Shown here: one piece after another, positions 13,742 through 26,735 of the stretch
How the letters are laid out: each line of letters begins with the position of its first letter
How positions within the stretch are numbered: the stretch's first letter is position 1
NCBI GenBank assembly: GCA_949288335.1
Contig: CASEJU010000055.1
Coordinates: 1-32,845, forward strand
Origin: an uncultured bacterium
Lineage (GTDB): Bacteria > Bacillota_I > Bacilli_A > RF39 > UBA660
DNA length: 32,845 nucleotides
Reading direction: 5' to 3'
The notes under the pieces: generated by a model
Database searches by the model: none
What the model saw: the letters and a program-made list of their open reading frames with translations, nothing else
Told to the model about the DNA's origin: nothing
Translations under genes and position numbers: made by a program

Positions 13742-15140
13742 ATGGGATAATTAAAGTTTGACCTATACTTAATATGTCAGAATTTAAGTTATTCATCATT
13801 CTAATAGCGTTTATACTAACACCAAAACGATTGGCAATACTCCATAAACTATCCCCTTTTTGAACGACGTAAAGATTTGATGTTGTACTACCATTACTAG
13901 AGTCTGTATTAGTAGGAATTATTAAAAGCTGACCAATACTTAATACGTCGGAGCTTAAATTATTAGCACGCTTTAAATCATCTACCGAAACTCCGTAAGC
14001 CGTTGAAATGGAATATAAACTATCTCCTCTTTGGACAATATAAGTATTCGTGTTTATAACGTCGTCATCATCTCCCGTACTTTCAACATCACCAGGTATA
14101 GTTAAAGTTTGACCAACACTTAAAATGTTACTAGTTAAATTGTTTTTGTTCATAATAGCAGCAGGAGTAGTGTTATACTTAAGCGCAATTGAATATAAAG
14201 TATCGCCTTTTTGTACTATATATACCGTATCCATATCCGGCATTTCTACACCACTATTCCCCGTGTTTGGTATTTGTAATACCTGACCTACGTAAATGGT
14301 ATTAGTTGCTAAATCATTAAGGTTAGCTAGTTCATCCACCGTGGTGTTATTAGCATTTGCAATAGACCATAAGCTATCTCCTTTTTGTACAACATACGTT
14401 ACGTTTGTCTGATCTGATGGTGCTACTCCAGGTATAACTAACTGTTGTCCAACACTTATTAAATTTGACGATAAGTTATTAGCATTTTTTATTTCGTTTA
14501 CACCAACGTTAAACCTTTTAGCAATACTCCATAAACTATCCCCTTTTTGAACCGTATAGGTATCATTAACGGTGTTGCCTCCTGGTGCAACATAGTTATA
14601 ACCTTTGTATTCTGCTACAGCTTTAACAACTGCCTCAGCCCATTTTTCCCAATCATTTCTAATTTGGTTTTTATCATCCTTCGTAGAATCCAAAAAAGCA
14701 TATTCAATTAATACTGATTCAGCAGGTGAAGTATTTCTAATTATGTAATAATAATCTTGATTTTGATTTGATGGTAGCCTTCTTTGGTACCATTTTCTTA
14801 TGTTTTGTCCGGTTGCCTCTATGTTATCAAGAATCATTTTAGATAATGTATCATTGTTTCTTAGTGCGTAAACAACTTCCGCACCGTCGCCACCACCGGC
14901 GTTTAAGTGATTAGAAATAACTATGTCATCACTACTTGTTATATTAGGTTTTATCACGTTTATGCGATTCGTTGGATTAAGAGTTGTATCACCAGTTCTT
15001 GTAATAACGGTTGGTATTCCAAGTTCTTTAAATCTGTTATACATATAATTAGCAATTTTAAGCGTATAATCCTTTTCTACTATATCTCCGCTTGATGCGC
15101 CAGGATCTGAGCCACCATGTCCAGCATCTACTATAACCAT
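13740..15140 (-). CDS. N-acetylmuramoyl-L-alanine amidase (Amidase_3) with five LysM domains
   Basis: 466 aa. The Amidase_3 domain (1-185) has all zinc ligands and the catalytic residue: His8 in AGHGGSD, Glu22 in VEKDY, His78 in SNHLN and Glu146 in LIEYAFL. Five LysM repeats follow (about 193-236, 248-291, 306-349, 367-410 and 423-466), separated by Gly/Ser/Asp/Asn linkers. The enzyme cleaves the lactyl-L-alanine bond of peptidoglycan. There is no signal peptide, unlike vegetative exported amidases. AAGGAAGTG precedes ATG and a sigma-K-like promoter lies just upstream. I infer a mother-cell enzyme acting on the spore or sporangium wall. Confidence 0.92.
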   Translation of the reverse strand: MVIVDAGHGGSDPGASSGDIVEKDYTLKIANYMYNRFKELGIPTVITRTGDTTLNPTNRINVIKPNITSSDDIVISNHLNAGGGDGAEVVYALRNNDTLSKMILDNIEATGQNIRKWYQRRLPSNQNQDYYYIIRNTSPAESVLIEYAFLDSTKDDKNQIRNDWEKWAEAVVKAVAEYKGYNYVAPGGNTVNDTYTVQKGDSLWSIAKRFNVGVNEIKNANNLSSNLISVGQQLVIPGVAPSDQTNVTYVVQKGDSLWSIANANNTTVDELANLNDLATNTIYVGQVLQIPNTGNSGVEMPDMDTVYIVQKGDTLYSIALKYNTTPAAIMNKNNLTSNILSVGQTLTIPGDVESTGDDDDVINTNTYIVQRGDSLYSISTAYGVSVDDLKRANNLSSDVLSIGQLLIIPTNTDSSNGSTTSNLYVVQKGDSLWSIANRFGVSINAIRMMNNLNSDILSIGQTLIIP

Positions 15141-15198
15141 ATTATCACTTCCTTCAAAGTATTGTATGATTAATACCTAATTGGGTGATAATAAAAAA
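15112..15198. repeat. 87-bp direct repeat, copy A
   Basis: Covers the first ~10 codons and promoter of the LysM amidase and the GTG start of the divergent 56-aa gene. It matches 23505-23591 in 82 of 87 positions by hand alignment. Two of the five differences are synonymous changes in amidase codons His and Gly. Confidence 0.9.
15160..15186 (-). promoter_or_regulatory. Sigma-K-like mother-cell promoter of the LysM amidase
   Basis: Minus-strand AC within CACC (15186-15185), 16-bp spacer, then CATACAATA (15168-15160). This fits the published sigma-K consensus mACm-N16/17-CATAnnnTA exactly and lies just ahead of the ribosome binding site. The same elements and spacing persist in repeat copy B. 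Confidence 0.65.
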
Positions 15199-15391: not shown

Positions 15392-15579
15392 GACGTGGCA
15401 CGTTCTGTTTGCTTTAGCAAATTAAAGTGGCAATAGAGCTAATAGGGTTTCAAAAGGGATAATCCCTTTGCACACAGCGTTATTGTATTTGACAATATCG
15501 TAGTTTGTTACCTAGTCGTCAAGAACTAGTTTTTAAACAGAAATTCATTAGTTACAAAGTTTCTTTTGGGTTTCTGTTT
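15392..15579 (+). ncRNA. Candidate structured noncoding RNA or DNA element
   Basis: About 190 bp without an ORF and visibly less AT-rich than the surrounding genes. It holds consecutive small hairpins: ACGT-GGC-ACGT, TTTGC-TTTA-GCAAA (15408-15421), AAAGGGAT-A-ATCCCTTT (15453-15469), TATTGT/ACAATA (15481-15497), and a last one with a U-tract (15511-15534). The succession of hairpins with a terminator suggests a small RNA. A transfer-origin-like site of a mobile element is the alternative. I could not match it to a named RNA family. Confidence 0.4.
15511..15535 (+). terminator. Terminator-like hairpin closing the structured region
   Basis: CTAGT (15512-15516) / ACTAG (15525-15529) followed by TTTTT. 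A larger AAACAGAAA...TTTCTGTTT repeat (about 15535-15580) may terminate the opposing gene. Confidence 0.55.
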
Positions 15580-16194
15580 TTAATTTTCTTCATGATATAA
15601 ATATTCATCTGGTATATTAGGATAACCACTAATATAAAAATTAAATATATCATTTAATACTTGTATACATATTCCATAAGAATTTTTATCTAATTTCTTT
15701 TCTTTGAAACAACTATATAATTGATTTTTAAAATTATAATATGAGTTTTCATAATTATTTTTATCTAAATTTTTAATATTGCTTATGTTCTGTATTATAT
15801 TGCTTAATTCATTTATTTCTAATTCAATTTTAGAATTAACTTTACTTTCTATATCTTCAATTAATTCATATAAAGAAAGTGCTAATAAATAATTAGAATA
15901 ATCAGTATTGGAAAAACTTTCATATTGATTAAAATAGTTTTTAAGGTCATTTATTGAATAATCATTCATATTAATTTCACTTAATTGATTACATAAATCA
16001 GAATCCAATACATAACCTTTTAGCGATATTTTATTAAGCTTTAATGTTTTCTCTATTTGATAATCGTTATCTGATAATTCTACAAGTTCATTTGCTTTTG
16101 TTATAAAATTAAATATTTTATTGTTAATATCATCATGAATTTTATCTATTTCAACATATGATTTTAATATTTTTACATTCAAATTATTATCCAT
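15580..16194 (-). CDS. Hypothetical helical protein of the accessory block
   Basis: 204 aa, very Asn/Lys/Ile/Tyr-rich, no signal peptide or membrane segment, predominantly helical with likely coiled-coil segments. AAGGATG lies upstream of ATG. It follows a broken HAD-like gene and was probably in the same operon as the nucleotidyltransferase-like gene at 16636-17982. No family recognised; base composition is like the other accessory genes and unlike the core genes. Confidence 0.7.
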   Translation of the reverse strand: MDNNLNVKILKSYVEIDKIHDDINNKIFNFITKANELVELSDNDYQIEKTLKLNKISLKGYVLDSDLCNQLSEINMNDYSINDLKNYFNQYESFSNTDYSNYLLALSLYELIEDIESKVNSKIELEINELSNIIQNISNIKNLDKNNYENSYYNFKNQLYSCFKEKKLDKNSYGICIQVLNDIFNFYISGYPNIPDEYLYHEEN

Positions 16195-16214
16195 GATATC
16201 ATCATCCTTAATTA

Positions 16215-16630
16215 TTATTTTAAATTTATAATTACTTCATTATATAATCTTAATAATTCATTATATGTTTGATTTAAACCAGCGCGATCATCTAATAGGA
16301 TATTGTAATATACTTTTCTACTTTTAAATGGAATAAATGATGCATCATCATTAATAGGATCATATGGCAAATTTTCTTTTTATAAAATTGATTCTATTTC
16401 GTTATACCTATCTGGTTCAGAAGAAGTAAAAACTATAAAATAAGCATATTCTTTATATTTTTTAATCAAATCTTTAACCATTTTGTAGGAAGATCCTGTA
16501 TTATGATAATCAAAAACTGTACTGTCCAAATCATATGCAATAATTAATTTTTTATGTACCTTAAATCTTCTTTTAATCGTTTATAAGATTTTTCTTTATT
16601 TAAGTATTCATCTATTATATTTTCATTCAT
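16215..16630 (-). pseudogene. Broken HAD-like hydrolase
   Basis: Joining two frames gives a ~138-aa HAD-type protein: an N-terminal helix (MNENIIDEYLNK...), then KKLIIAYDLDSTVFDYHN (DxDxTxxD motif I), FTSSEPDRY (motif II) and YNILLDDRAGL (motif IV). It is broken twice: a one-base frameshift near 16557-16563, just before motif I, and an in-frame TAA at 16380-16382. HAD proteins of this compact DDRAGL type are phosphatase-like and occur in Bacillota accessory DNA. AGGAGA, embedded in the end of the upstream gene, precedes the ATG. Two independent lesions make sequencing error less likely. Confidence 0.8.
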
Positions 16631-16635
16631 ATTGA

Positions 16636-17982
16636 TTATCTCCTAATTAACATATAAATAATCATAAATAGCACACCACACACAAAACTAACAATTAATG
16701 ATAATGTAATAATATTTGTAAATCCCTTACTTCCAGTTGAACTACTATTTGAACTAGATTTAGTTAAATTTTTAGATTTATTAAGTTGTTGCTTTTGTGC
16801 TTTTTGGTGTTTAATTGCTTGATTTTTTTCTTTTATTTGTTTATGAACTTGTATTTCACTTTGACTTCTTTGAGCAAATGGTTTTTGATTTTTAGTTTGT
16901 TGTGCTTGAACTTGTATCACATTTTTATCATTATCAATAGTTATTTTTTTAGTTTGAGTTTCTATTACTTTAGGTTTCTTCATGATTGAAGTTATTTGTC
17001 TTAGCTTTTCTTTATCAACCACTTTTACTAAAACTTTATTATCAATAATATCCTTTTCTCGTTTTGCTGCTGCCTTTGTTATATATGTGAATTCTGGAGA
17101 CATAAGTCTAATATTTCTTCCATTACTATTATAGTTTATAATTTGATTTTCCTCATTAATGCCGCCAAATAAAGTTGCTTTAGTTATGATTTGTTCAATA
17201 GATTTTTGAATACTAAAATTTCTTACAACCATACCTTCTTTAGTGGCAATAGTAGGAAATATTGAAACATCAACACCATTAACAGATAATTCCATACCAT
17301 AATCTTCGCCACATAATTGTAGTGAATCGCTTATAATATGATATTTATCTTTATGTTCAAGAATATATTCTCGTATTTTAGCCATATCTTCCAACTTGGC
17401 ATGTGCATCAACATCTCCAATTATTCTTTTAGGCTCTTCACCAGTCATAATATATGGAATTGTACCACCATATATAGAAAGTGTTGATGATAGCATTTCA
17501 TCATCAAAAAGTATTCCGATAGTTTCTCTTATATTAGAAAAATTACTATCAACTTTACCACTTTTTACTTGTTCTTCTAACATTTTTTTTCTTCTTTCAT
17601 CTTGTATGCTTTCATCTATAGCTTCGTATCTTCTATCAATTTGTTCTTTTGATAAATTTTGTTCTAACATTTTTTTAATAAACTGTTCTATCTTACTATC
17701 ATCAAATTCAATACTATAATCACGTTTTATATGCTCAACTCTTTTTTTAGTTACATCGACAAATCTTTTTTGTTTTTCCTTACGTGTAACATATTCTTCT
17801 ATTGTTTGTCTTACTAAATCATCTATCTTACTTTTAATTGAATCAATGCTTTCATCAGAACTATTGAACATAGTTTTAGCCCTAGATATTTGTTCATCGC
17901 TTAAAATATTAGGATATTCTTTATTTAAATACCTAGCCAAGTTATCTATATAAGTGTTTATTTCAACATGTTTTTCATCCAT
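16636..17982 (-). CDS. Nucleotidyltransferase-like, tail-anchored protein
   Basis: 448 aa in three parts. Residues 1-140 are charged and helical and contain a module (DEQISRAKTMF...SIKSKIDDLV) shared with the 112-aa protein at 21745-22083. Residues ~150-320 look like a nucleotidyltransferase fold: YGGTIPYIM followed by GDVDAH, the G-G...DxD pattern, with a further FPT strand. A Lys/Gln-rich linker ends in one C-terminal membrane helix (about 425-445). I prefer ATG 17982, with AGAGG seven bases before it, over ATG 18000, which lies only ~12 nt from the expected transcription start. Activity and substrate unknown. Confidence 0.7.
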   Translation of the reverse strand: MDEKHVEINTYIDNLARYLNKEYPNILSDEQISRAKTMFNSSDESIDSIKSKIDDLVRQTIEEYVTRKEKQKRFVDVTKKRVEHIKRDYSIEFDDSKIEQFIKKMLEQNLSKEQIDRRYEAIDESIQDERRKKMLEEQVKSGKVDSNFSNIRETIGILFDDEMLSSTLSIYGGTIPYIMTGEEPKRIIGDVDAHAKLEDMAKIREYILEHKDKYHIISDSLQLCGEDYGMELSVNGVDVSIFPTIATKEGMVVRNFSIQKSIEQIITKATLFGGINEENQIINYNSNGRNIRLMSPEFTYITKAAAKREKDIIDNKVLVKVVDKEKLRQITSIMKKPKVIETQTKKITIDNDKNVIQVQAQQTKNQKPFAQRSQSEIQVHKQIKEKNQAIKHQKAQKQQLNKSKNLTKSSSNSSSTGSKGFTNIITLSLIVSFVCGVLFMIIYMLIRR

Positions 17983-18019
17983 ATCTTTACCTCTTTTCAT
18001 ATATCCTATACTATATGTA

Positions 18020-18028
18020 ATTATAACA
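18020..18028 (-). promoter_or_regulatory. Extended -10 promoter of the nucleotidyltransferase-like operon
   Basis: Minus-strand TGTTATAAT (TGn plus TATAAT at 18025-18020). No good -35 is seen, as is common with extended -10 promoters. Transcription would start about 30 nt upstream of ATG 17982. Confidence 0.6.
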
Positions 18029-18057
18029 TATTTTGAGATCCTTTTTTATAAATAGTT

Positions 18058-19914
18058 TTAATCATGTTTATTAAAAGTGTTAATTAAGTGCATGTATTCT
18101 TTTTTATACATGCCATTACTATCAATAATATGAGCATTTAAATTATTACCATTATTATCAATGCAATGATTCCATGTTAAATTATCACTATTACCCCAAG
18201 TAACAAATCCTTTTAAACAATCTTTATATTGTTTTATAAAAGTATTCATTATTATTTGTCTTTCTCGTTCATCATTACATATAAAATCAAATTCAGTACA
18301 ATATAAAGAAATATTAAGTTTTTTGTATTTTTTTGAAGTTTTAATAATATCATTTATAGATAATTTTTTATTATAAGATATTTTTTCTAAATAATGTGAT
18401 TGTAAACCTAAACCATCAATTAATTTAATATTATCTCTTTTTTCTATTTTTTTAATATATCGTATTATTTTACAGATCTTATTACATTTCTTAATGTTAT
18501 ATTCATTATATTCATTATAAATTAAGTCTATTTTTGGAAAATATTTTTTCAATATTTTTAAGACATCAATAAAATATTCATCTCCATTTGTTGGATTTTT
18601 GCCAATAGCATTTTTCCAAAATGATTTTCTATATAAATAATCATTTTCATTTTCTGCTATCTCATTTAAAGCATCCATTAAAATGATAGGATACTTATTT
18701 TCTTTAAAAAATGATGATAATTTAAATGCATAATATTCAATGAATTTTAGTGTAGCATTTCTTTTTAATTCTTCTTTTTCTTCTTTTGATAGATTTAAAT
18801 TATCAATATTATCTATTTCATTTTTTAAATTTTCAGGTATTGAATTATGCCATAAGAAATCATGATGTTTTATTAATTTATTCTTTTGTTTTGTATAATC
18901 ATATATTATTTTAAGATGTGAAAAATCAAATTTTAAATCTTTATTAATGTTGTAGTTATCATCAAATATCTTTTGATTAATTGGAACAATAAATTTCATT
19001 TTTCCTTCTGATTCACATTGTACTAAATTAATATCTTTAATATAAATACTATATAGATTTTTAATAGTATCATAATTTAAACTACCATATCCTAGAAAAA
19101 GATCATACATAGCATTATCTATTTTATTTACATTACTCGTTAATTTCTTTAAGTAAGTTAATGTATTATTTTTTTTCTTTTTGATCATTTCTTTAATTTT
19201 TTTGTTATATTCAGTTTTTTTCTCTTGATTCGTTATATCTAACTTGCTAATTTTTTCAAAAAGAATAAACAATTCAATTAAAAGAGATTTGTATGTTGTA
19301 CCAAAATAATTACTCATCTTCTTTTTCTTTTTGCTATAAACATAATTTTTAAATAATCTGTAAACTATTCTTAATGTTGAATATGTCAAGGTATATGAAT
19401 ATAAGTCTTTTAATACATATTCTCGTGTAGAAAAATAATCAGATTTTATTATAAATTGATTTTTTAAACTTAATAATTTAAGTAATTTTAAATCATCATA
19501 TTTAATAACATTATATCTTGAAGTAACTTCTGAACAATTAAATAATTTACATGCAAGATTTTTAGCAGAACATCCTTTATTTGTTTGATACAAACACTTT
19601 CTACAGCATCCATTACATTTACCATTTTTTAATTTTCTTTGTACATAGCATTTATTATCTTTAAAACCGCATATATTGATACTTTTAGTATTATCATCAA
19701 TTAATTTGCATGAATTATCATATATATATGTAATTCTTTTTTTACGATTTTTAATATTTAATGCATTTATTATATAGTCCATCATATTATCATTAATACT
19801 ATTGTTAACCACAAAAAGAGTGTTGCAATATAAAATACTCTTATATATATTTATTTTTTTAAGAAATTTAATATAATCATTATTATTATTTATTAAAATA
19901 GTTTTACTTTTCAT
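18058..19914 (-). CDS. GH10 xylanase-fold protein with cysteine-rich N-terminal domain
   Basis: 618 aa, no signal peptide. The C-terminal half (about 265-612) has the GH10 landmarks in order: HHDFLWHNSIP near 350 (family HxLxWHxxxP), MDALNE with acid/base Glu418, IYNEYN near 465, DGLGLQSH near 500, YCTEFDF with nucleophile Glu541, and VTWGNSD near 571. GH10 enzymes cleave beta-1,4-xylan and are normally secreted. The N-terminal part has eight cysteines in 89-127 (KCNGCCRKC...GC...ACKLFNC), resembling CxxCC metal-binding YkgJ-type domains. Residues 140-265 are helical, unknown. Last gene of the operon starting at 22083. Confidence 0.8.
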   Translation of the reverse strand: MKSKTILINNNNDYIKFLKKINIYKSILYCNTLFVVNNSINDNMMDYIINALNIKNRKKRITYIYDNSCKLIDDNTKSINICGFKDNKCYVQRKLKNGKCNGCCRKCLYQTNKGCSAKNLACKLFNCSEVTSRYNVIKYDDLKLLKLLSLKNQFIIKSDYFSTREYVLKDLYSYTLTYSTLRIVYRLFKNYVYSKKKKKMSNYFGTTYKSLLIELFILFEKISKLDITNQEKKTEYNKKIKEMIKKKKNNTLTYLKKLTSNVNKIDNAMYDLFLGYGSLNYDTIKNLYSIYIKDINLVQCESEGKMKFIVPINQKIFDDNYNINKDLKFDFSHLKIIYDYTKQKNKLIKHHDFLWHNSIPENLKNEIDNIDNLNLSKEEKEELKRNATLKFIEYYAFKLSSFFKENKYPIILMDALNEIAENENDYLYRKSFWKNAIGKNPTNGDEYFIDVLKILKKYFPKIDLIYNEYNEYNIKKCNKICKIIRYIKKIEKRDNIKLIDGLGLQSHYLEKISYNKKLSINDIIKTSKKYKKLNISLYCTEFDFICNDERERQIIMNTFIKQYKDCLKGFVTWGNSDNLTWNHCIDNNGNNLNAHIIDSNGMYKKEYMHLINTFNKHD

Positions 19915-19940
19915 AAACTCCTACCATAACAATTATATCA

Positions 19941-20702
19941 CTATATATGTAAAGTCTTAACCTTTACATCAGATTCTTCATTTTCTAAAATATCCATTGT
20001 ATTATTGTGTGCAATATCATTGATATGTTGTTGATCATTTTGTTCACTCATTTTTTTAAATTTTATATATTCTATTAAATCTTCAAGTAACCATGCCCCT
20101 TCTTTATATTCATCACACTTTTTAAAATTATATATATTCATGCTTTTTTTAAAATATTTTTCAATAGTAATTACCAAATTTAGATTTTCAAAATAACACA
20201 GGTCTACTGAGCAATCTTCTAAAACTATCCTTTTTCCAAATAAAACTGGTAGTAAAGAATTAGCAAAATTACTATTAGTATCAACCTTTCTCACTGCTAT
20301 TGGTACTGCAAAATCACTTTTAAAATCCTTATATTTGGATGCAAATCTACCATAATAATAATCGTTAATCATATCACACCCATTGTCGTCAAAACAACTA
20401 CCTTCATTATATATTTCGCAACCACGATTATAGAAATATTCAGCTCCTTGTTTTGATAATAAATTATCCTTATATAGAGAAACAAATTCTTCTATATTTA
20501 ATTCATCAGGAAATTTATGAATAGTTTTTGTAAATAATATACTATTTTGAAAAAACCAATCAATTTGCACTCCAGATTCTTTTCCAATATAATTGCTTGC
20601 AAAATCATATTTATAAAGATGTATAAAATCAATTCCTAATTTTTCTAATTGAATAGCAATTGAAGTAATTTTTTTATCTGTATAACGATCCATTTTCAAC
20701 AT
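19941..20702 (-). CDS. Hypothetical protein with shared C-terminal tail
   Basis: 253 aa, soluble, no signal peptide. Four cysteines lie in a ~20-residue stretch near 95-115 (RGCEIYNEGSCF and nearby). The C-terminal ~30 residues (HINDIAHNN ... VKTLHI) resemble the tail of the 343-aa protein encoded 14 bp upstream (HIIDTAHRN ... ITTLHK), although the rest of the two proteins differs. Third gene of the operon; the GH10-like gene follows 26 bp downstream. No family recognised. Confidence 0.7.
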   Translation of the reverse strand: MLKMDRYTDKKITSIAIQLEKLGIDFIHLYKYDFASNYIGKESGVQIDWFFQNSILFTKTIHKFPDELNIEEFVSLYKDNLLSKQGAEYFYNRGCEIYNEGSCFDDNGCDMINDYYYGRFASKYKDFKSDFAVPIAVRKVDTNSNFANSLLPVLFGKRIVLEDCSVDLCYFENLNLVITIEKYFKKSMNIYNFKKCDEYKEGAWLLEDLIEYIKFKKMSEQNDQQHINDIAHNNTMDILENEESDVKVKTLHI

Positions 20703-20716
20703 CCCCTTCGTATATA

Positions 20717-21748
20717 CTATTTATGTAATGTAGTAATTACTTGTTCTTTATTATCTTCCCCAAATAATTTTGTTATATTTCTATGTGCGGTATCAATAAT
20801 ATGTTCTTCACTTTGTTGTTGTAAAATTAAATTTGCTTTCATTTGTTTTAATCTTTCAATTTCTTTCAATTTTGTATCAATTTCTTCACCTATACTAAAT
20901 ATCATTTGATTTTTTATTAAATTGTAGTCAACATTTTTAAATAAATCTCTAGTAAAAACATTATCAATATACCACTTTAGAAATGTATCATCAAATGACT
21001 GAATATCATCATTTTGTACATAATCGTTTTTCATATGAATAGGCGATTCAAAAAGTGCACATGTACAAACTAAACAATCATCAATCTTAACCCAATTTAC
21101 TGGGGCAACTTTAAACCAATTATTATGATATTTTATTGCTCTTATTTCTTCTCCCTTTGATGTTACTGTTTTAAAAATACTATAATCTTCAACTATTAAT
21201 TTATCATCTTCGATTACGATAGATGGTAACGAAATTTTATCTTCTGTTTTTTGAAATGATTCTTCAGTAAAAGTAGAGCCAGCGTATACCCAACCAGGAA
21301 CCCCACCATAAATAGTATGAGGTTCTTCTTCGAAAACTATTCTTTCTTTAGGGTAAGAACCTAAGGTATAGCATTCGTTTTCAGTCTTTTTAACGACTTT
21401 AGAAACATACTTATAAAGGACAACTGGTATTATTCCAAATTGTTGCCAAGTATGTCTATTTTTATATTCATTTTTACCATTAATTATTTCACTTGATGAC
21501 ATAATTTTACTAGAAAGCCAGTCCTCTTTTTCATCTTTAGAATCTGATTTTAAAAGAATATAGTTATCCCTATAAAGGCCATAATAAAGACTATCACACC
21601 ATTCATAAGGTTTTCTTAAACTGTTTATATTACTCATTAACGATTCATACATTTCATTTGCAAAACTGCTACAACTTGCGAATCCACGTCTTAACAATTG
21701 TTCACCATCAATTATAGATATTAAACTATATTTATTACCATTATTCAT
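20717..21748 (-). CDS. DUF6273-like protein with shared C-terminal tail
   Basis: 343 aa, soluble. The middle carries the pattern of DUF6273-type modules: TLGSYPKERI, WFKVAPVNWVKID, CTCALFESPIHM and a late FLKWYIDNVF, analogous to 'G.YPQ ... W.VL ... LLs...l ... lr.WLN..F'. A coiled-coil-like stretch near 290-315 precedes the tail HIIDTAHRN...TTLHK shared with the next protein. The gene starts inside the stop of the 112-aa gene (ATGA overlap), so translation is coupled. The DUF6273 relation is a motif-level inference; the molecular role of such modules is not established. Confidence 0.65.
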   Translation of the reverse strand: MNNGNKYSLISIIDGEQLLRRGFASCSSFANEMYESLMSNINSLRKPYEWCDSLYYGLYRDNYILLKSDSKDEKEDWLSSKIMSSSEIINGKNEYKNRHTWQQFGIIPVVLYKYVSKVVKKTENECYTLGSYPKERIVFEEEPHTIYGGVPGWVYAGSTFTEESFQKTEDKISLPSIVIEDDKLIVEDYSIFKTVTSKGEEIRAIKYHNNWFKVAPVNWVKIDDCLVCTCALFESPIHMKNDYVQNDDIQSFDDTFLKWYIDNVFTRDLFKNVDYNLIKNQMIFSIGEEIDTKLKEIERLKQMKANLILQQQSEEHIIDTAHRNITKLFGEDNKEQVITTLHK

Positions 21749-22083
21749 TTTCTTTTTCCCCTTTTATTTAAGTAACTTTTTTTCTTTTGTAATGTTTTAT
21801 TTTGATTATGCTTGTTTTTTCTTGCTCGTACATAATTTCTTTTTAAATGTTCAATATATCTTGTTCTTTCGTTTTGAACGTGCCAATCTATAATTTGCTT
21901 TATTGTTTCAAAATTTTCATTTCTATTTGTAAACATTGCTATTGCTCTTTGAAACTTTTCGTCTGGTATTATATTATTACAAGAATAATTCAATTGCATA
22001 ATCACCTTTGTTAAATATAAAATAACTTTTTGATTCTTGATGTTCATTAATGTATTATTGTTGTTTAAATTTTCATTTTTCAT
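21745..22083 (-). CDS. Small basic helical protein, first gene of the operon
   Basis: 112 aa from ATG 22083, which has AGGGGG upstream; the in-frame ATG at 22107 has none. Asn-rich start, then a helical module (IIPDEKFQRAIAMFTN...ETIKQIIDWHVQ) similar to residues ~25-75 of the nucleotidyltransferase-like protein at 16636-17982. The C-terminal tail is strongly basic (RARKNKHNQN, KKSYLNKRGKRK), compatible with nucleic-acid or membrane-surface binding. Leads the operon opposite the LysR-type gene. No family name known to me. Confidence 0.65.
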   Translation of the reverse strand: MKNENLNNNNTLMNIKNQKVILYLTKVIMQLNYSCNNIIPDEKFQRAIAMFTNRNENFETIKQIIDWHVQNERTRYIEHLKRNYVRARKNKHNQNKTLQKKKSYLNKRGKRK

Positions 22084-22109
22084 ATATATTCCCCCTTTTC
22101 TTGTCATAT

Positions 22110-22138
22110 ATTATAATAGGTGTGTTGCTATTTGTAAA
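22110..22138 (-). promoter_or_regulatory. Promoter of the GH10-like operon
   Basis: Minus-strand TTTACA (22138-22133), 17-bp spacer, TATAAT (22115-22110), about 27 bp before ATG 22083. It is divergent from the LysR-type promoter, with about 18 bp between the two -35 hexamers. Confidence 0.75.
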
Positions 22139-22155
22139 ATGTTTATTTTTTATAT

Positions 22156-22183
22156 TTGACATAACATTTTGTTATGATACAAT
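22156..22183 (+). promoter_or_regulatory. Promoter of the LysR-type gene
   Basis: TTGACA (22156-22161), 16-bp spacer, TACAAT (22178-22183), about 18 bp before the ATG. The spacer is filled by a palindrome. Confidence 0.75.
22160..22176. promoter_or_regulatory. Palindromic operator, LysR T-N11-A type
   Basis: CATAACA-TTT-TGTTATG is a perfect 7-bp inverted repeat. Its core TAACATTTTGTTA fits the T-N11-A motif of LysR-type regulators. Its position between -35 and -10 of the lysR-type gene predicts autorepression, and it lies about 22 bp upstream of the divergent operon's -35. Confidence 0.7.
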
Positions 22184-22201
22184 ATTTATAGGGGATGAAG
22201 C

Positions 22202-23026
22202 ATGAATATTAATTTTGAATATTATAAAGTATTTTATGTAATAGCTAAAAACAAAAATATAACTAAAGCAGCCAATGAATTAAATATTAGTCAACCAGCC
22301 ATAAGTAGAATGTTAAAATCAATGGAAGATCAAATGAGTACGAAATTATTCATAAGAAAAACAAAAGGTGTCATATTAACAAATGAAGGTAAAGAGTTAT
22401 ATAGGCTTATAGCAGATAATATTGATAATATTATGAAGTCAGAAATCAGTTTTTCAAAAATAATAAAGAATAAAACAATTAAAATTGCAGGTAATAAAAC
22501 ATATATCAATTATTTAATAGAAAACAAGAAATTAGACAACATTTTTAACAATAGTTCAAATATAAATTTGATTGATACAAATAGTTTTGATTTATTAAAT
22601 AATCAATTATCCAACAATTTAATAGATTTCGCTTTTATATCAGAACCTACTAATTATCAATTTAATAATGAGTTAGTATTTAAACAATTAGAAGAATTTC
22701 ATTTAGTTTATTTTTCAAATAATGAAAATAATAAACCAATTGTTCTTTTAAACAACAATAAATTTAGTAATATATGCAAAGAATATTTAAAATCTATCGA
22801 TATTAATACTGAAAATATTATATTAGTTGATGATTATGATATTATTTATCCATTAATATCTAATGGGTATGCAAATGGTTTTTTAATTAAAGAATATATT
22901 AATAGTAATTCATCAAATACTGACATTTCAGAATTTAATATGTCAGATAGCATTTCTACTATTAAAATGGGAATATTATATAACATAAATAATGAATTTA
23001 AAATTAAAAAGTATTTTAACAAGTAG
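22202..23026 (+). CDS. LysR-type transcriptional regulator
   Basis: 274 aa. The N-terminal winged HTH is typical: YYKVFYVIAKNKNITKAANELNISQPAISR, then LFIRKTKGVILTNEGKEL. The effector domain (about 90-274) is Asn/Ile-rich and shorter than usual, consistent with adaptation to an AT-rich genome. AGGGGATG precedes ATG. It is divergent from the four-gene GH10-like operon, the standard arrangement for a LysR regulator controlling its neighbour and itself, and a T-N11-A palindrome lies in the intergenic region. Effector unknown. Confidence 0.92.
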   Translation: MNINFEYYKVFYVIAKNKNITKAANELNISQPAISRMLKSMEDQMSTKLFIRKTKGVILTNEGKELYRLIADNIDNIMKSEISFSKIIKNKTIKIAGNKTYINYLIENKKLDNIFNNSSNINLIDTNSFDLLNNQLSNNLIDFAFISEPTNYQFNNELVFKQLEEFHLVYFSNNENNKPIVLLNNNKFSNICKEYLKSIDINTENIILVDDYDIIYPLISNGYANGFLIKEYINSNSSNTDISEFNMSDSISTIKMGILYNINNEFKIKKYFNK

Positions 23027-23067
23027 AAAAAGCGAGAGTATGCTTTAATAACATATTCTCACTTTTA
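23027..23067 (+). terminator. Terminator of the LysR-type gene
   Basis: Imperfect long hairpin AAAAGCGAGAGTATG / CATATTCTCACTTTT right after the stop codon. Confidence 0.75.
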
Positions 23068-23504: not shown

Positions 23505-23591
23505 CCTCCGTGTCCAGCATCTACTATAACCATATTATCACTTCCTTCAAAGTATTTTATGATTAATACCTATTTGGGTGATAGTAAAAAA
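23505..23591. repeat. 87-bp direct repeat, copy B (promoter and truncated gene starts)
   Basis: Same orientation as copy A. It contains MVIVDAGHGG of an Amidase_3 gene (ATG near 23534, minus strand), which ends after about 15 codons in unrelated sequence. It also has a sigma-K-like promoter (CATAAAATA at 23561-23553, AC 16 bp upstream) and the GTG start of the divergent small gene, cut off after a few codons by a terminator. Synonymous differences in the amidase codons suggest it came from a paralogous locus or an old duplication. Confidence 0.85.
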
Positions 23592-23619: not shown

Positions 23620-24537
23620 TTAAAGTTCATTATTAAAATATTTAGTTAACATTTCTTTTAACTTAACCTTTGAATCATACCAATTAATTAAATCTATAAA
23701 TTCTTCTAGATCACACCATTTATAATCAATACTTTCTTCGTTTAAAATTATATTATGATTATTAGAATATGTTATAAAACAATGCTCTAAACATTTTCTA
23801 CCTAATGACTCATATTTAAATAAAAGTGGAAGCCTTTTTATCTCTAATGCATTTAAATTCGTTTCTTCTTTTATTTCACGTTTAACAGCATCCGTTAAAC
23901 TTTTATCTTCTTTTTCTACAGCACCTGTTACAACATACCAAAATGATTTATGAAATTGTGGGTCTTTGTTACTTCCTTTTAATAATAATAATTTATTATC
24001 ACTAACTATAAATGTTAATATTTTTTGAATACAATTTTTATCCAAATAATTTAAATAAATATTTCTTGTTCCTCTTTTGAAATCCATGTGGTTAATTAAC
24101 TTAAAATCATCTTTTATTATATTATTAATTGAATAAATATTATCTGGATGAATAGTTGTTACTGCATATTTATATCCCATTTTAATACAATAATTATCCA
24201 ATTCAAGTAACATCTGATATTGCAAGCCATTACCTATGTATTTTGGATTAACAAACATAGGGCCATAGTCCGCTACATCTTTATAATCTAAATCTAATTC
24301 AAATTTTAATAAAGATTTTTTATCTGCTGGAATTAACATCATAGAACAAACTGGTTCTTTATCTAAATAGTAAATCCATATTTTAGAGTTGTTATTTAAT
24401 AAATTTAGTAAATCTTTCTTTGAAAAATCACCAAGCCATTCTGGATGTATCATATTTTTTTTAACATTTTCTCTAAATTCAATATATTTATCTATATTAA
24501 TATTATAATTTTCACATTTTAAATCTTTTAGTATCAT
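23620..24537 (-). CDS. GNAT acetyltransferase-Nudix hydrolase fusion
   Basis: 305 aa. Residues 1-165 resemble a GNAT N-acetyltransferase, with a central beta strand DYGPMFVNPKYIGNGLQ (acetyl-CoA loop region) and YAVTTIHPDN. Residues 165-300 are a Nudix domain: YVVTGAVEK, then AVKREIKEETNL. The Nudix box GX5EX7REUXEEXGU is nearly complete, but Asp replaces the first Glu and Asn the last Gly. Nudix enzymes hydrolyse nucleoside diphosphate derivatives. Single-gene unit with an extended -10 promoter and its own terminator; composition resembles the accessory block. Confidence 0.82.
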   Translation of the reverse strand: MILKDLKCENYNINIDKYIEFRENVKKNMIHPEWLGDFSKKDLLNLLNNNSKIWIYYLDKEPVCSMMLIPADKKSLLKFELDLDYKDVADYGPMFVNPKYIGNGLQYQMLLELDNYCIKMGYKYAVTTIHPDNIYSINNIIKDDFKLINHMDFKRGTRNIYLNYLDKNCIQKILTFIVSDNKLLLLKGSNKDPQFHKSFWYVVTGAVEKEDKSLTDAVKREIKEETNLNALEIKRLPLLFKYESLGRKCLEHCFITYSNNHNIILNEESIDYKWCDLEEFIDLINWYDSKVKLKEMLTKYFNNEL

Positions 24538-24585: not shown

Positions 24586-24599
24586 TATTTATAATATTT

Positions 24600-24624
24600 A
24601 AAAAAAGAAACCTTTTAGGTTTCT
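24600..24624 (-). terminator. Terminator of the htrA-like gene
   Basis: Same 25-bp hairpin-plus-T-run as at 23586-23610, just past the stop codon of the protease gene. Confidence 0.9.
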
Positions 24625-25790
24625 TAACTTGTTTTATTTAACTTTAAAGTGGTTTTAGCTTCTTTTCCATTTCTATAGTAAGTTGCTTCTACTTTATCAC
24701 CAATATTATGTTTATACAATTCATATTTAAATTCTGATACCGTAGTAACATCTTCACCATCTATTTTAGTTATTATATCTCCTTCTTTTAAACCAGCATC
24801 ACTTGCAGGAGAACCGCTTTCTACTTTTACTAATATAATACCAGCTTTAATACTTGAATCAACGTTTATACCATATCTATATAAAGCGTATTTATTTGTT
24901 AAATCAAGAATTTGAACACCAATATATGGCCTTTGTATTTCTTTTCCTTGTTCTAAAGTATCAACATAGTTCATTGCATCTTCAATAGGAATAGCAAATC
25001 CCATACCCTCAACCTCATCATCAACTAGTTTTAACGAAGTAATACCAATAACATCGCCAGCTAAATTAACAAGTGGACCTCCACTATTACCTGGACTTAT
25101 CGCAGCATCGGTCTGTAAAACCTTAACGATGTATGATTCGGATGATAAACCGTTTGACGTACTAGTTTCAACTAATCTATCCTTACCAGATAAAATACCT
25201 TTAGTTATTGTTCCAACGTAAGTAGAACCCATTGGTGAACCTACCGTAAACACCGTGTTACCTACCGCAGTATTTTTACTATCACCTATACTAGCTACTT
25301 GTTTTACTTGCTTTACATCCATTCTTAAAACTGCCAAATCAGTATATGAATCCGTTCCCAATATCGTTAAGTTAACGGTGGTGTTATCGGTCATTAAACC
25401 TTGAACGTTAGTACCTGAAGAAACAACGTGAGCATTAGTTAAAACATAACCATATTTATCATCAGTTGCATAAACAAAACCAGTTCCAGAACTTAATACC
25501 GAACCATCACCATTTAAAACTTCAATGCATAAAACCGCATCATAAATTTTATCAATTGCATCTTCCATGGCTTCTTCTGTTACTTTAGTATTAGACGTTA
25601 TTGTGTTTTTATTAATAATCTTTGGATTCTTAACGCTATACCAATACATCAATCCAACACCAACTGCAAAAGCCAAAAGAATTGCTAGTGCAAATTTAAG
25701 GCTGTTATTAATCTTCTTTTTTTTATTTAGTTTTAAATTTTCATTTTCCTCGTTTTTCTTTGCTTCAACGAATTCTATTTTATCTTTCAT
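24624..25790 (-). CDS. HtrA/DegP-like membrane-anchored serine protease
   Basis: 388 aa. Cytoplasmic charged N-terminus, one membrane helix (about 31-51), trypsin-like domain with catalytic His (TNAHVV, ~121), Asp (SYTDLAVL, ~151) and Ser (GNSGGPL, ~236), then one C-terminal PDZ domain (about 290-375). Same layout as B. subtilis HtrA/YyxA proteases that degrade misfolded extracytoplasmic proteins. I prefer ATG 25790 over the in-frame GTG at 25799, which is too close to AGGA. It lies 12 bp after the Abi_2 gene and is probably co-transcribed with it. Confidence 0.92.
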   Translation of the reverse strand: MKDKIEFVEAKKNEENENLKLNKKKKINNSLKFALAILLAFAVGVGLMYWYSVKNPKIINKNTITSNTKVTEEAMEDAIDKIYDAVLCIEVLNGDGSVLSSGTGFVYATDDKYGYVLTNAHVVSSGTNVQGLMTDNTTVNLTILGTDSYTDLAVLRMDVKQVKQVASIGDSKNTAVGNTVFTVGSPMGSTYVGTITKGILSGKDRLVETSTSNGLSSESYIVKVLQTDAAISPGNSGGPLVNLAGDVIGITSLKLVDDEVEGMGFAIPIEDAMNYVDTLEQGKEIQRPYIGVQILDLTNKYALYRYGINVDSSIKAGIILVKVESGSPASDAGLKEGDIITKIDGEDVTTVSEFKYELYKHNIGDKVEATYYRNGKEAKTTLKLNKTS

Positions 25791-25802
25791 TTGAATCACA
25801 TC

Positions 25803-26735
25803 CTATCTTAGCTTAGAAATTTCCTCCCAATTTTCCGGAAATCCCATTCTATCTAATATTTTTGATTGAGGAATAACATTTACTCTTCCATCAAGTAAAC
25901 TTAAATCGTAGCTAACCTCATTAACAAAATCAATAAAATCACTTTCGGTAAGCATTTGTTTTAACATTATAACAACAGAATATATGTCATTTTTACCATA
26001 GACATATTCATCATTCATCATTGGAATGTCAAGTTCCATATGATATTTTGTATCAGGAATTTCTTTTTGCGTACGATGATCATACACAATGTCTTCATGC
26101 GCACACAAATTACGATAATTCGAAAGTAAAGTAATATAAATACCTAATGTTTCTACGTCCAAATTATAATATTCCGCAATTGCTAATTTATCATCTGGTT
26201 TTAGTATGGAATATAACTCATTAATCATTCCAAAAGATAATAATTTAACTAAAATCCATAATGGAACATATCCGTATTTACTTAAGTAGTGAAGTGTTGC
26301 ACTATGCTGTCTACCATTTAACTTTATCTGTCTTTTAATTTTATTTAAAACGTCATTAACTTGCCTTATTTTTTTTGTATCTTGAGAGAAATTTGAAGGT
26401 TTTAAATAATCTTTTTCCTTAATACCATACTTTTTTGACAACTTATACGATATTATTGATTTTAAATTATTTTCTACAATAAGTAAATTTTTAAACAATA
26501 AATTCCTAAAGCTTCTATCGAATTGAAACACCGCATATAATTCTTCAAAAGTAGTACCTTTAATAAAAAAATCTTCCTTATGATTCTTCATAAATATATG
26601 TCTATAACCATTAATAAAGAAATAATTTTCTCTTAAAAGCAAACTTTCTGTTTTTTCAACATCATTAATTACCAACCCACGGTTTTTTAATATTTCGACT
26701 TGCTCATCTAAGGTTTTAAACTCTTTAGTCTTCAC
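25803..26735 (-). CDS. Abi_2 (AbiD/F-like) HEPN-domain protein
   Basis: 310 aa of the Abi_2 family (PF07751). Typical features: TLDEQVEILKNRGL at the start, YFFINGYRH near 33, FDRSFRNLLF near 73, and the HEPN-type RNLCAHED motif near 210. Known members are abortive-infection proteins thought to act through HEPN RNase or nucleic-acid binding, though some sit in stable chromosomal loci. Start is GTG with AGGTG seven bases upstream, behind an extended -10. It leads a two-gene unit with htrA, an unusual partner for a defence protein. Confidence 0.87.
   Translation of the reverse strand: MKTKEFKTLDEQVEILKNRGLVINDVEKTESLLLRENYFFINGYRHIFMKNHKEDFFIKGTTFEELYAVFQFDRSFRNLLFKNLLIVENNLKSIISYKLSKKYGIKEKDYLKPSNFSQDTKKIRQVNDVLNKIKRQIKLNGRQHSATLHYLSKYGYVPLWILVKLLSFGMINELYSILKPDDKLAIAEYYNLDVETLGIYITLLSNYRNLCAHEDIVYDHRTQKEIPDTKYHMELDIPMMNDEYVYGKNDIYSVVIMLKQMLTESDFIDFVNEVSYDLSLLDGRVNVIPQSKILDRMGFPENWEEISKLR

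What the first reader, a model, noticed from the sequence alone, without database searches (positions are those of the whole stretch)
18058..22083. Undescribed four-gene operon: intracellular GH10 fused to a Cys-rich domain, with DUF6273-like and tail-sharing partners
The operon encodes a basic helical protein, a DUF6273-like protein, an unknown protein and a GH10-fold protein. The GH10 part keeps both catalytic Glu residues and the LWHNSIP and WGNSD motifs but has no signal peptide. An eight-cysteine CxxCC-type domain and a helical region sit in front. Xylanase domains are normally secreted and not joined to a metal-binding-like module. With a LysR regulator opposite and a tail-anchored nucleotidyltransferase next door, this looks like a coordinated system of unknown purpose, possibly glycan modification or defence.
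Basis: partly seen in the sequence, partly recalled or inferred. Interest (0 to 1): 0.75.

Follow-up and report, generated by a model that had tools for sequence, protein, structure and literature searches.

The report
Mobile operon with swappable membrane-tethered enzymes
The reported xylanase-like fusion protein is real but is a one-off joining of two genes, and it sits in a mobile gene cassette of uncultured gut Bacilli in which one membrane-tethered enzyme is swapped between relatives while the genes around it stay the same.

Summary
The four genes exist as described. The 618-aa protein has a true GH10 domain (PF00331, E=6.6e-29) behind an eight-cysteine domain.

(1) The Cys domain is a separate ~200-aa family found alone in dozens of genomes. 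The GH10 part begins at an internal Met that is the native start of standalone GH10. No other genome examined has this fusion.

(2) The neighbourhood is conserved and larger than reported: divergent LysR, 120-aa module protein, 343-aa, 253-aa, Cys protein, a tail-anchored enzyme, (HAD gene, a pseudogene here), and a ~204-aa helical protein. Orthologous loci in other gut Bacilli MAGs are 71-92% identical in DNA.

(3) At one position the enzyme's N-terminal module and C-terminal membrane tail are constant while its middle differs: nucleotidyltransferase-like here, GH10 in L068, another domain in L069/L177. The pair "tail-anchored enzyme + 204-aa protein" recurs in 16 of 17 loci.

(4) Mob/Pre relaxase genes and an oriT-like repeat link the cassette to mobilizable elements.

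The DUF6273 label failed. A food-xylan role is unlikely: no xylose isomerase or GH43 was found. Best reading: an effector-swapping conflict or defence cassette; its purpose is inferred, not shown.

The parts
22202..23026 (+). Divergent LysR-type regulator
   Evidence: PF00126 E=2.5e-18; orthologues at the same place in L068, L069, L074, L110, L177, L201
22108..22201 (.). 94-nt divergent intergenic region, presumed LysR operator and operon promoter
   Evidence: position and sequence only; inference
21745..22107 (-). 120-aa basic protein made mostly of the helical N-terminal module shared with the tail-anchored enzymes
   Evidence: module HMM A1/A7; 82-86% identity among relatives L068/L110/L177
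20717..21748 (-). 343-aa protein of unknown family; conserved C-terminal tail EHIIDTAHRNITxLF...TLHK
   Evidence: alignment A5; no Pfam match in 5 homologues
19941..20702 (-). 253-aa protein of unknown family with a related C-terminal tail
   Evidence: 85% identical orthologue in L177; broken into two pieces in L069; tail similarity 0/2000 shuffles
19318..19914 (-). Residues 1-199 of the 618-aa protein: eight-Cys domain, equivalent to a standalone ~200-aa protein in relatives
   Evidence: 18-sequence alignment A2 with eight invariant Cys; 82% identical standalone L068; AlphaFold pLDDT about 77-97 over residues 1-200
18058..19317 (-). Residues 200-618: GH10 part, starting at the native start Met of standalone GH10
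   Evidence: PF00331 287-610 E=6.6e-29; junction; 41% identity to the GH10 middle domain of tail-anchored L202 protein
16636..18000 (-). 454-aa tail-anchored enzyme of the cassette: N-terminal module, nucleotidyltransferase-like middle, constant tail with C-terminal TM (430-452)
   Evidence: tail DNA conserved in L068, L069, L177, L201, L202
16218..16630 (-). Pseudogene of the HAD-like gene found here in L069 and L177
   Evidence: tblastn 83% identity to the L177 protein, in two frames
15580..16194 (-). 204-aa all-helical conserved partner of the tail-anchored enzymes
   Evidence: 35-88% identity in 9 loci; found in 15 of 243 family genomes; AlphaFold pLDDT 92.7
15431..15577 (-). Hairpin-rich repeat (oriT-like) that flanks both ends of the cassette in L068 and L069
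   Evidence: blastn 78-82% identity; alignment A12

Best explanation
The genes are part of a mobile cassette of about 7.6 kb (window ~15431-23067) in an uncultured gut Bacilli lineage. Shown: a constant set of genes (divergent LysR, 120-aa module protein, 343- and 253-aa proteins, eight-Cys protein, 204-aa helical protein) surrounds one variable slot. The slot holds a protein with a constant helical N-terminal module, a constant C-terminal tail ending in a single TM helix, and an exchanged middle enzyme domain. Shown: in this genome the Cys gene was fused in frame, by loss of its stop codon and the intergenic region, to a GH10 domain of the kind that elsewhere sits in the slot (L202); the slot itself holds a nucleotidyltransferase-like domain. 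Inferred: LysR senses a signal and switches on the divergent operon; the enzyme is tethered by its tail to the inner face of the membrane; the 204-aa protein binds the constant ends and controls or chaperones whatever enzyme is present; the enzyme attacks a molecule of an invader or of the cell itself, so that the cassette works as an effector-swapping conflict or defence system; the Cys protein binds a metal or Fe-S cluster and may sense redox or metal state. In the fusion, GH10 would be placed under the Cys domain instead of on the membrane.
For: Conserved locus in L068, L069, L074, L110, L177, 71-92% DNA identity with breaks at the tail of the slot protein (~16.9 kb) and at the fusion junction. 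Constant ends with unrelated middles in window/L068/L069. Middle domains: GH10, PHP, nucleotidyltransferase-like, and a domain matching the PADLOC defence candidate PDC-M03A (E=7.6e-10). The 204-aa gene follows a protein with a single C-terminal TM in 16 of 17 loci, directly or across the HAD gene; 19 of 190 complete genes in these loci have such a TM, those proteins included. Mob/Pre relaxase beside the cassette (PF01076 E=2.7e-25) and end repeats. Both catalytic Glu are kept in most slot GH10 domains, nucleophile 13/13 and acid/base 11/13. No xylose isomerase or GH43 in the genome. An Abi_2 gene lies nearby.
Against: No window protein matches a PADLOC family except a weak LysR hit. No toxicity, immunity or phage data exist. 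GH10 is an unusual effector. The cassette was not found in phages, plasmids or viral contigs. Swapping among three orthologous loci is a small sample; the middle domain of L069/L177 is unidentified.
Confidence: 0.45

Rival explanations
1. Ordinary intracellular xylanase: the GH10 part trims imported xylo-oligosaccharides for food, as IXT6-type enzymes do, and LysR controls it by a sugar signal.
For: GH10 motifs intact; intracellular GH10 xylanases are among the best PDB sequence matches.
Against: No xylose isomerase over cut-off and no GH43 in this 95% complete genome, with positive controls ringing. No sugar transporter or sugar kinase in the operon. Slot GH10 domains of relatives lost the HTxxWH substrate-site motif. 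Other beta-xylosidase families (GH3, GH39, GH52, GH120) were not searched.
Confidence: 0.08
2. Cell-envelope upkeep: tail-anchored enzymes act at the inner face of the membrane on lipid-linked glycans or nucleotide-activated precursors, and different lineages exchange enzymes to vary their surface.
For: Inner-membrane tethering fits lipid-linked substrates. A tail-anchored nucleotidyltransferase-fold relative, next to rsmI in the loci read, was found in 15 of 17 other genomes of the genus. Glycosidase and nucleotidyltransferase chemistry both suit glycan building.
Against: Sporadic presence (15 of 243 family genomes), relaxase association, and middle domains such as HExxH-like or PDC-M03A-like that do not fit glycan synthesis.
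Confidence: 0.2
3. Delivered effectors: the module and tail are an export or sorting signal, and the enzymes act on neighbouring bacteria or on the animal host.
For: Constant ends with variable enzymes look like a delivery chassis; a weak HopA1-like hit (E=0.003) lies in a neighbour of one slot gene.
Against: No signal peptide. The charge pattern (basic stretch before the TM, two or three residues after it) predicts the enzyme inside the cell. No secretion genes in the cassette; constant partner instead of matched immunity genes.
Confidence: 0.12
4. For the fusion alone: the in-frame Cys-GH10 junction is an assembly error of this MAG, and the living cell has two genes.
For: Fusion not seen in any other locus. 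The junction is at an A-rich stretch directly before the native GH10 start codon.
Against: An error would have to remove the stop codon and the whole intergenic region, not one base; the frame is open throughout and the gene has an operon-like position.
Confidence: 0.15

Closest known systems
GH10 endo-xylanases, intracellular type (IXT6 of Geobacillus)
   Same: GH10 domain with both catalytic Glu and the WH and WGNSD-type motifs; no signal peptide
   Different: Fused to an eight-Cys domain; embedded in a mobile cassette; no xylose pathway found; homologous domains elsewhere are tail-anchored and diverged
Polymorphic toxin systems
   Same: Constant parts with an exchanged enzyme domain at a fixed locus
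   Different: Variable part in the middle rather than C-terminal; membrane tail instead of a trafficking domain; constant 204-aa partner instead of matched immunity genes
Effector-swapping anti-phage systems (CBASS and retron-like logic)
   Same: Constant genes with interchangeable effectors, sporadic presence, mobile context; one relative's middle domain matches PDC-M03A
   Different: No known sensor or signal-making component recognised; no PADLOC match for the core genes
CxxCxxCC / YkgJ-type metal-binding proteins (PF03692)
   Same: Small cytosolic Cys-rich protein with an adjacent CC pair
   Different: No Pfam match for the two members scanned up to E=10, and no significant PDB sequence or fold match

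Membership tests
Glycoside hydrolase family 10 (PF00331) | Profile match above the gathering cut-off over nearly the whole model | tested here: met
   101.5 bits against cut-off 22.1, model 28-308 of 311
Glycoside hydrolase family 10 (PF00331) | Acid/base Glu in the NE motif and nucleophile Glu in the TE(F)D motif | tested here: met
   E418 and E541 aligned with those of L026 and L202 and with 4l4o
Glycoside hydrolase family 10 (PF00331) | (beta/alpha)8 barrel | tested here: inconclusive
   AlphaFold model of this region has pLDDT mostly below 60 because the alignment was poor; no fold match. Barrel inferred from family membership
Intracellular xylanase for sugar use | Downstream xylose pathway in the genome | tested here: not met
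   No TIGR02630 and no PF04616 match in G000; other beta-xylosidase families not searched
DUF6273 (343-aa protein) | Profile match | tested here: not met
   No Pfam family up to E=10 in five homologues
CxxCxxCC metal-binding family PF03692 (Cys domain) | Profile match | tested here: not met
   Not among matches up to E=10 for L002 or the window domain
LysR regulators | HTH_1 domain at the N terminus | tested here: met
   PF00126 8-64, E=2.5e-18
Polymorphic toxin systems | Constant N-terminal trafficking part, variable C-terminal toxin, matched immunity gene next to it | tested here: not met
   Variable part is in the middle, the tail is constant, the downstream gene is constant
Known anti-phage defence systems | Core proteins match PADLOC models | tested here: not met
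   No match for the window genes except weak LysR; one relative's middle domain matches PDC-M03A
Known anti-phage defence systems | Protects cells from phage | not testable with these tools
   needs an experiment
Tail-anchored membrane proteins | Single TM helix at the extreme C terminus, no N-terminal signal | tested here: met
   Hydropathy maximum 25 residues from the C-terminal end in the 454-aa protein; same in the slot proteins

The most novel reading that the evidence does not exclude
A new class of mobile conflict system in gut Bacilli: a constant chassis (LysR, module protein, eight-Cys protein, 204-aa helical partner) that carries an interchangeable, inner-membrane-tethered enzyme, with glycoside hydrolases among its effectors; in this genome a glycosidase effector has been re-wired onto the Cys protein.
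Probability: 0.25. Interest if true: 0.8.

Novelty: new variant of a known kind. Interest (0 to 1): 0.55.

Why it matters
If true, uncultured small-genome gut Bacilli exchange membrane-tethered enzymes in a fixed genetic frame carried by mobilizable elements, a design different from polymorphic toxins and from catalogued defence systems. It gives several unnamed protein families (eight-Cys protein, 204-aa protein, N-terminal module, tail) a shared context and makes them testable together. It would also point to glycosidases as intracellular effectors.

Tried and rejected
Xylan nutrition: no xylose isomerase or GH43. Prophage or phage origin: no relative in IMG/VR viral contigs, phage records or plasmids. 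DUF6273: no profile match. Known fold for the Cys domain or the 204-aa protein: no significant match in PDB or viral structures. A single operon query in sister genomes of the same genus suggested lack of conservation; the named-genome scan with the Cys domain overturned that. A circular 7.5-kb plasmid for L068: contig ends do not overlap. Rfam: no RNA family at the repeats. First structure job: the GH10 half modelled badly, so it neither supports nor refutes the barrel. A HipA-like kinase in L182 was suspected by eye; Pfam gave no hit and PADLOC gave PDC-M03A. ADP-ribosyltransferase-like (L069/L177, L203) and HExxH metallopeptidase-like (L202-L204) middles are by eye only. Four literature searches on the system and its proteins gave nothing that describes it.
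Full report
What was checked. The 618-aa protein carries PF00331 (E=6.6e-29, residues 287-610). Its best PDB sequence relatives are GH10 xylanases, among them intracellular ones. The acid/base Glu (E418) and nucleophile Glu (E541) are present. The N-terminal part has eight Cys that are invariant in an 18-sequence alignment. The shared tails of the 343- and 253-aa proteins are not chance (0 of 2000 shuffles). The DUF6273 label found no support.

The fusion is local. Searches of sister genomes show the Cys domain as a separate ~200-aa protein, with one copy in this same genome behind der. A scan of named genomes gave 80 loci. None of them has the Cys domain joined to GH10, and in the closest ones it is a gene of its own, including one 82% identical to the window domain (L068). 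In the window DNA the Cys reading frame runs ...AAAAAGAAAAAGAAG into ATG AGT AAT TAT TTT GGT. This ATG (codon 200) corresponds to the start of a standalone GH10 protein (MSKFGSSITYK in L026 against MSNYFGTTYK here). DNA similarity to the orthologous loci stops at about this junction. So the stop codon and intergenic region were lost and two ORFs were joined.

The neighbourhood is conserved. L177 (G225) holds, in the same order: LysR divergent, 105-aa module protein, 343-aa relative, a protein 85% identical to the 253-aa one, standalone Cys protein, a 563-aa tail-anchored protein, a HAD-like protein, and the 204-aa relative, between comEC-like and penicillin-binding-protein-like genes (the names of the two flanking genes are by eye). 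L068, L069, L074 and L110 hold parts of the same set. The window even keeps the HAD gene as a pseudogene at 16218-16630. In sister genomes of the same genus the 343- and 253-aa proteins are absent or hit only weakly. The locus is therefore accessory.

One position varies. The window 454-aa protein, the L068 705-aa protein and the L069 565-aa protein share about 70 residues at the N terminus and about 85 at the C terminus, ending in one TM helix, but have unrelated middles: nucleotidyltransferase-like, GH10, and unidentified. The N-terminal module occurs in 20 of 186 family genomes. Proteins with a slot-type GH10 domain occur across the family, in a few cases joined to a PHP domain. The window's own GH10 is 41% identical over 400 aa to the middle domain of such a protein in L202, which sits between a Mob/Pre relaxase gene and a 204-aa gene. 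The window GH10 is therefore most simply a slot domain that has been moved onto the Cys protein. In the aligned GH10 domains the nucleophile Glu is kept in 13 of 13 and the acid/base Glu in 11 of 13, so glycosidase chemistry is probably retained even where the substrate site changed.

The constant partner. The 204-aa family occurs in 15 of 243 family genomes; a sixteenth hit, inside a RelA-like protein, is spurious. In 14 of 17 loci the gene immediately upstream encodes a protein with a single C-terminal TM; in two more the HAD gene lies between; in one the upstream GH10 fragment lacks the tail. Its predicted structure is confident and all helical (pLDDT 92.7), without a match in PDB or viral structures. 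A partner that stays constant while the enzyme changes most likely contacts the constant ends. That is inference.

Mobility. Mob/Pre relaxase genes lie beside the cassette in L068, L110, L201 and L202. A hairpin-rich repeat flanks both ends in L068 and L069 and lies at window 15431-15577. It looks like an origin of transfer (inference; no Rfam match). No relaxase relative was found in the window. No relatives were found in phages, plasmids or viral contigs.

How it most likely works. Anatomy shown; mechanism inferred: LysR turns on the divergent operon, the enzyme is held at the inner face of the membrane by its tail, the 204-aa protein controls it, and the enzyme acts in conflict with an invader or on the cell itself. 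Support for conflict: swapping of effectors at a fixed place, sporadic distribution, mobile context, one relative's middle domain matching a PADLOC defence candidate (L182, PDC-M03A, E=7.6e-10), and an Abi_2 gene 2.8 kb from the LysR gene. Against: no match of the core genes to known systems and no experiment. The nutritional reading is weakened by the absence of xylose isomerase and GH43. Envelope work at the inner membrane remains the main rival.

Novelty. No paper found describes the locus (open-licence PMC only). The logic of constant chassis plus exchanged effector is known from other systems; the components and the middle-swap, tail-anchored design are not matched to any family tested. 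I rate it a new variant of a known kind.

Noticed in passing
L027, L028, L031, L036 (also L075): Proteins without signal peptide in which GH10 is joined to a PHP (histidinol-phosphatase-like) domain and long helical tails; an unusual combination in this bacterial family.
   Followed up: partly
L054-L067: A ~237-aa tail-anchored protein with a nucleotidyltransferase-like fold and a degenerate DxD motif is found in 15 of 17 other genomes of the genus, next to rsmI in the loci read; distant relative of the window 454-aa protein.
   Followed up: partly
L002, L024, L009; L077-L094: The eight-Cys protein is often a direct neighbour of der (ribosome-assembly GTPase) and in another lineage of a typA/bipA-like GTPase gene, which may hint at a ribosome link.
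   Followed up: no
window 15112-15198 and 23505-23591: 87-bp direct repeat, 94% identical, one copy at the start of the LysM amidase gene and one beyond the LysR gene, bracketing the cassette; a 37-bp relative at 24599-24635.
   Followed up: partly
window 25803-26735: Abi_2 (abortive-infection) gene between an HtrA-like protease gene and rpsI.
   Followed up: no
window 23620-24537: Protein with a weak GNAT-like match fused to a NUDIX domain.
   Followed up: no
L116 4487-5605 and 6470-8458: Two different proteins in one locus share a nearly identical C-terminal tail with TM, as if tails are copied between slot genes.
   Followed up: partly
L208 6083-6361: A 93-aa remnant that is only the constant tail with its TM, directly before the 204-aa-type gene; the enzyme part is gone.
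   Followed up: no
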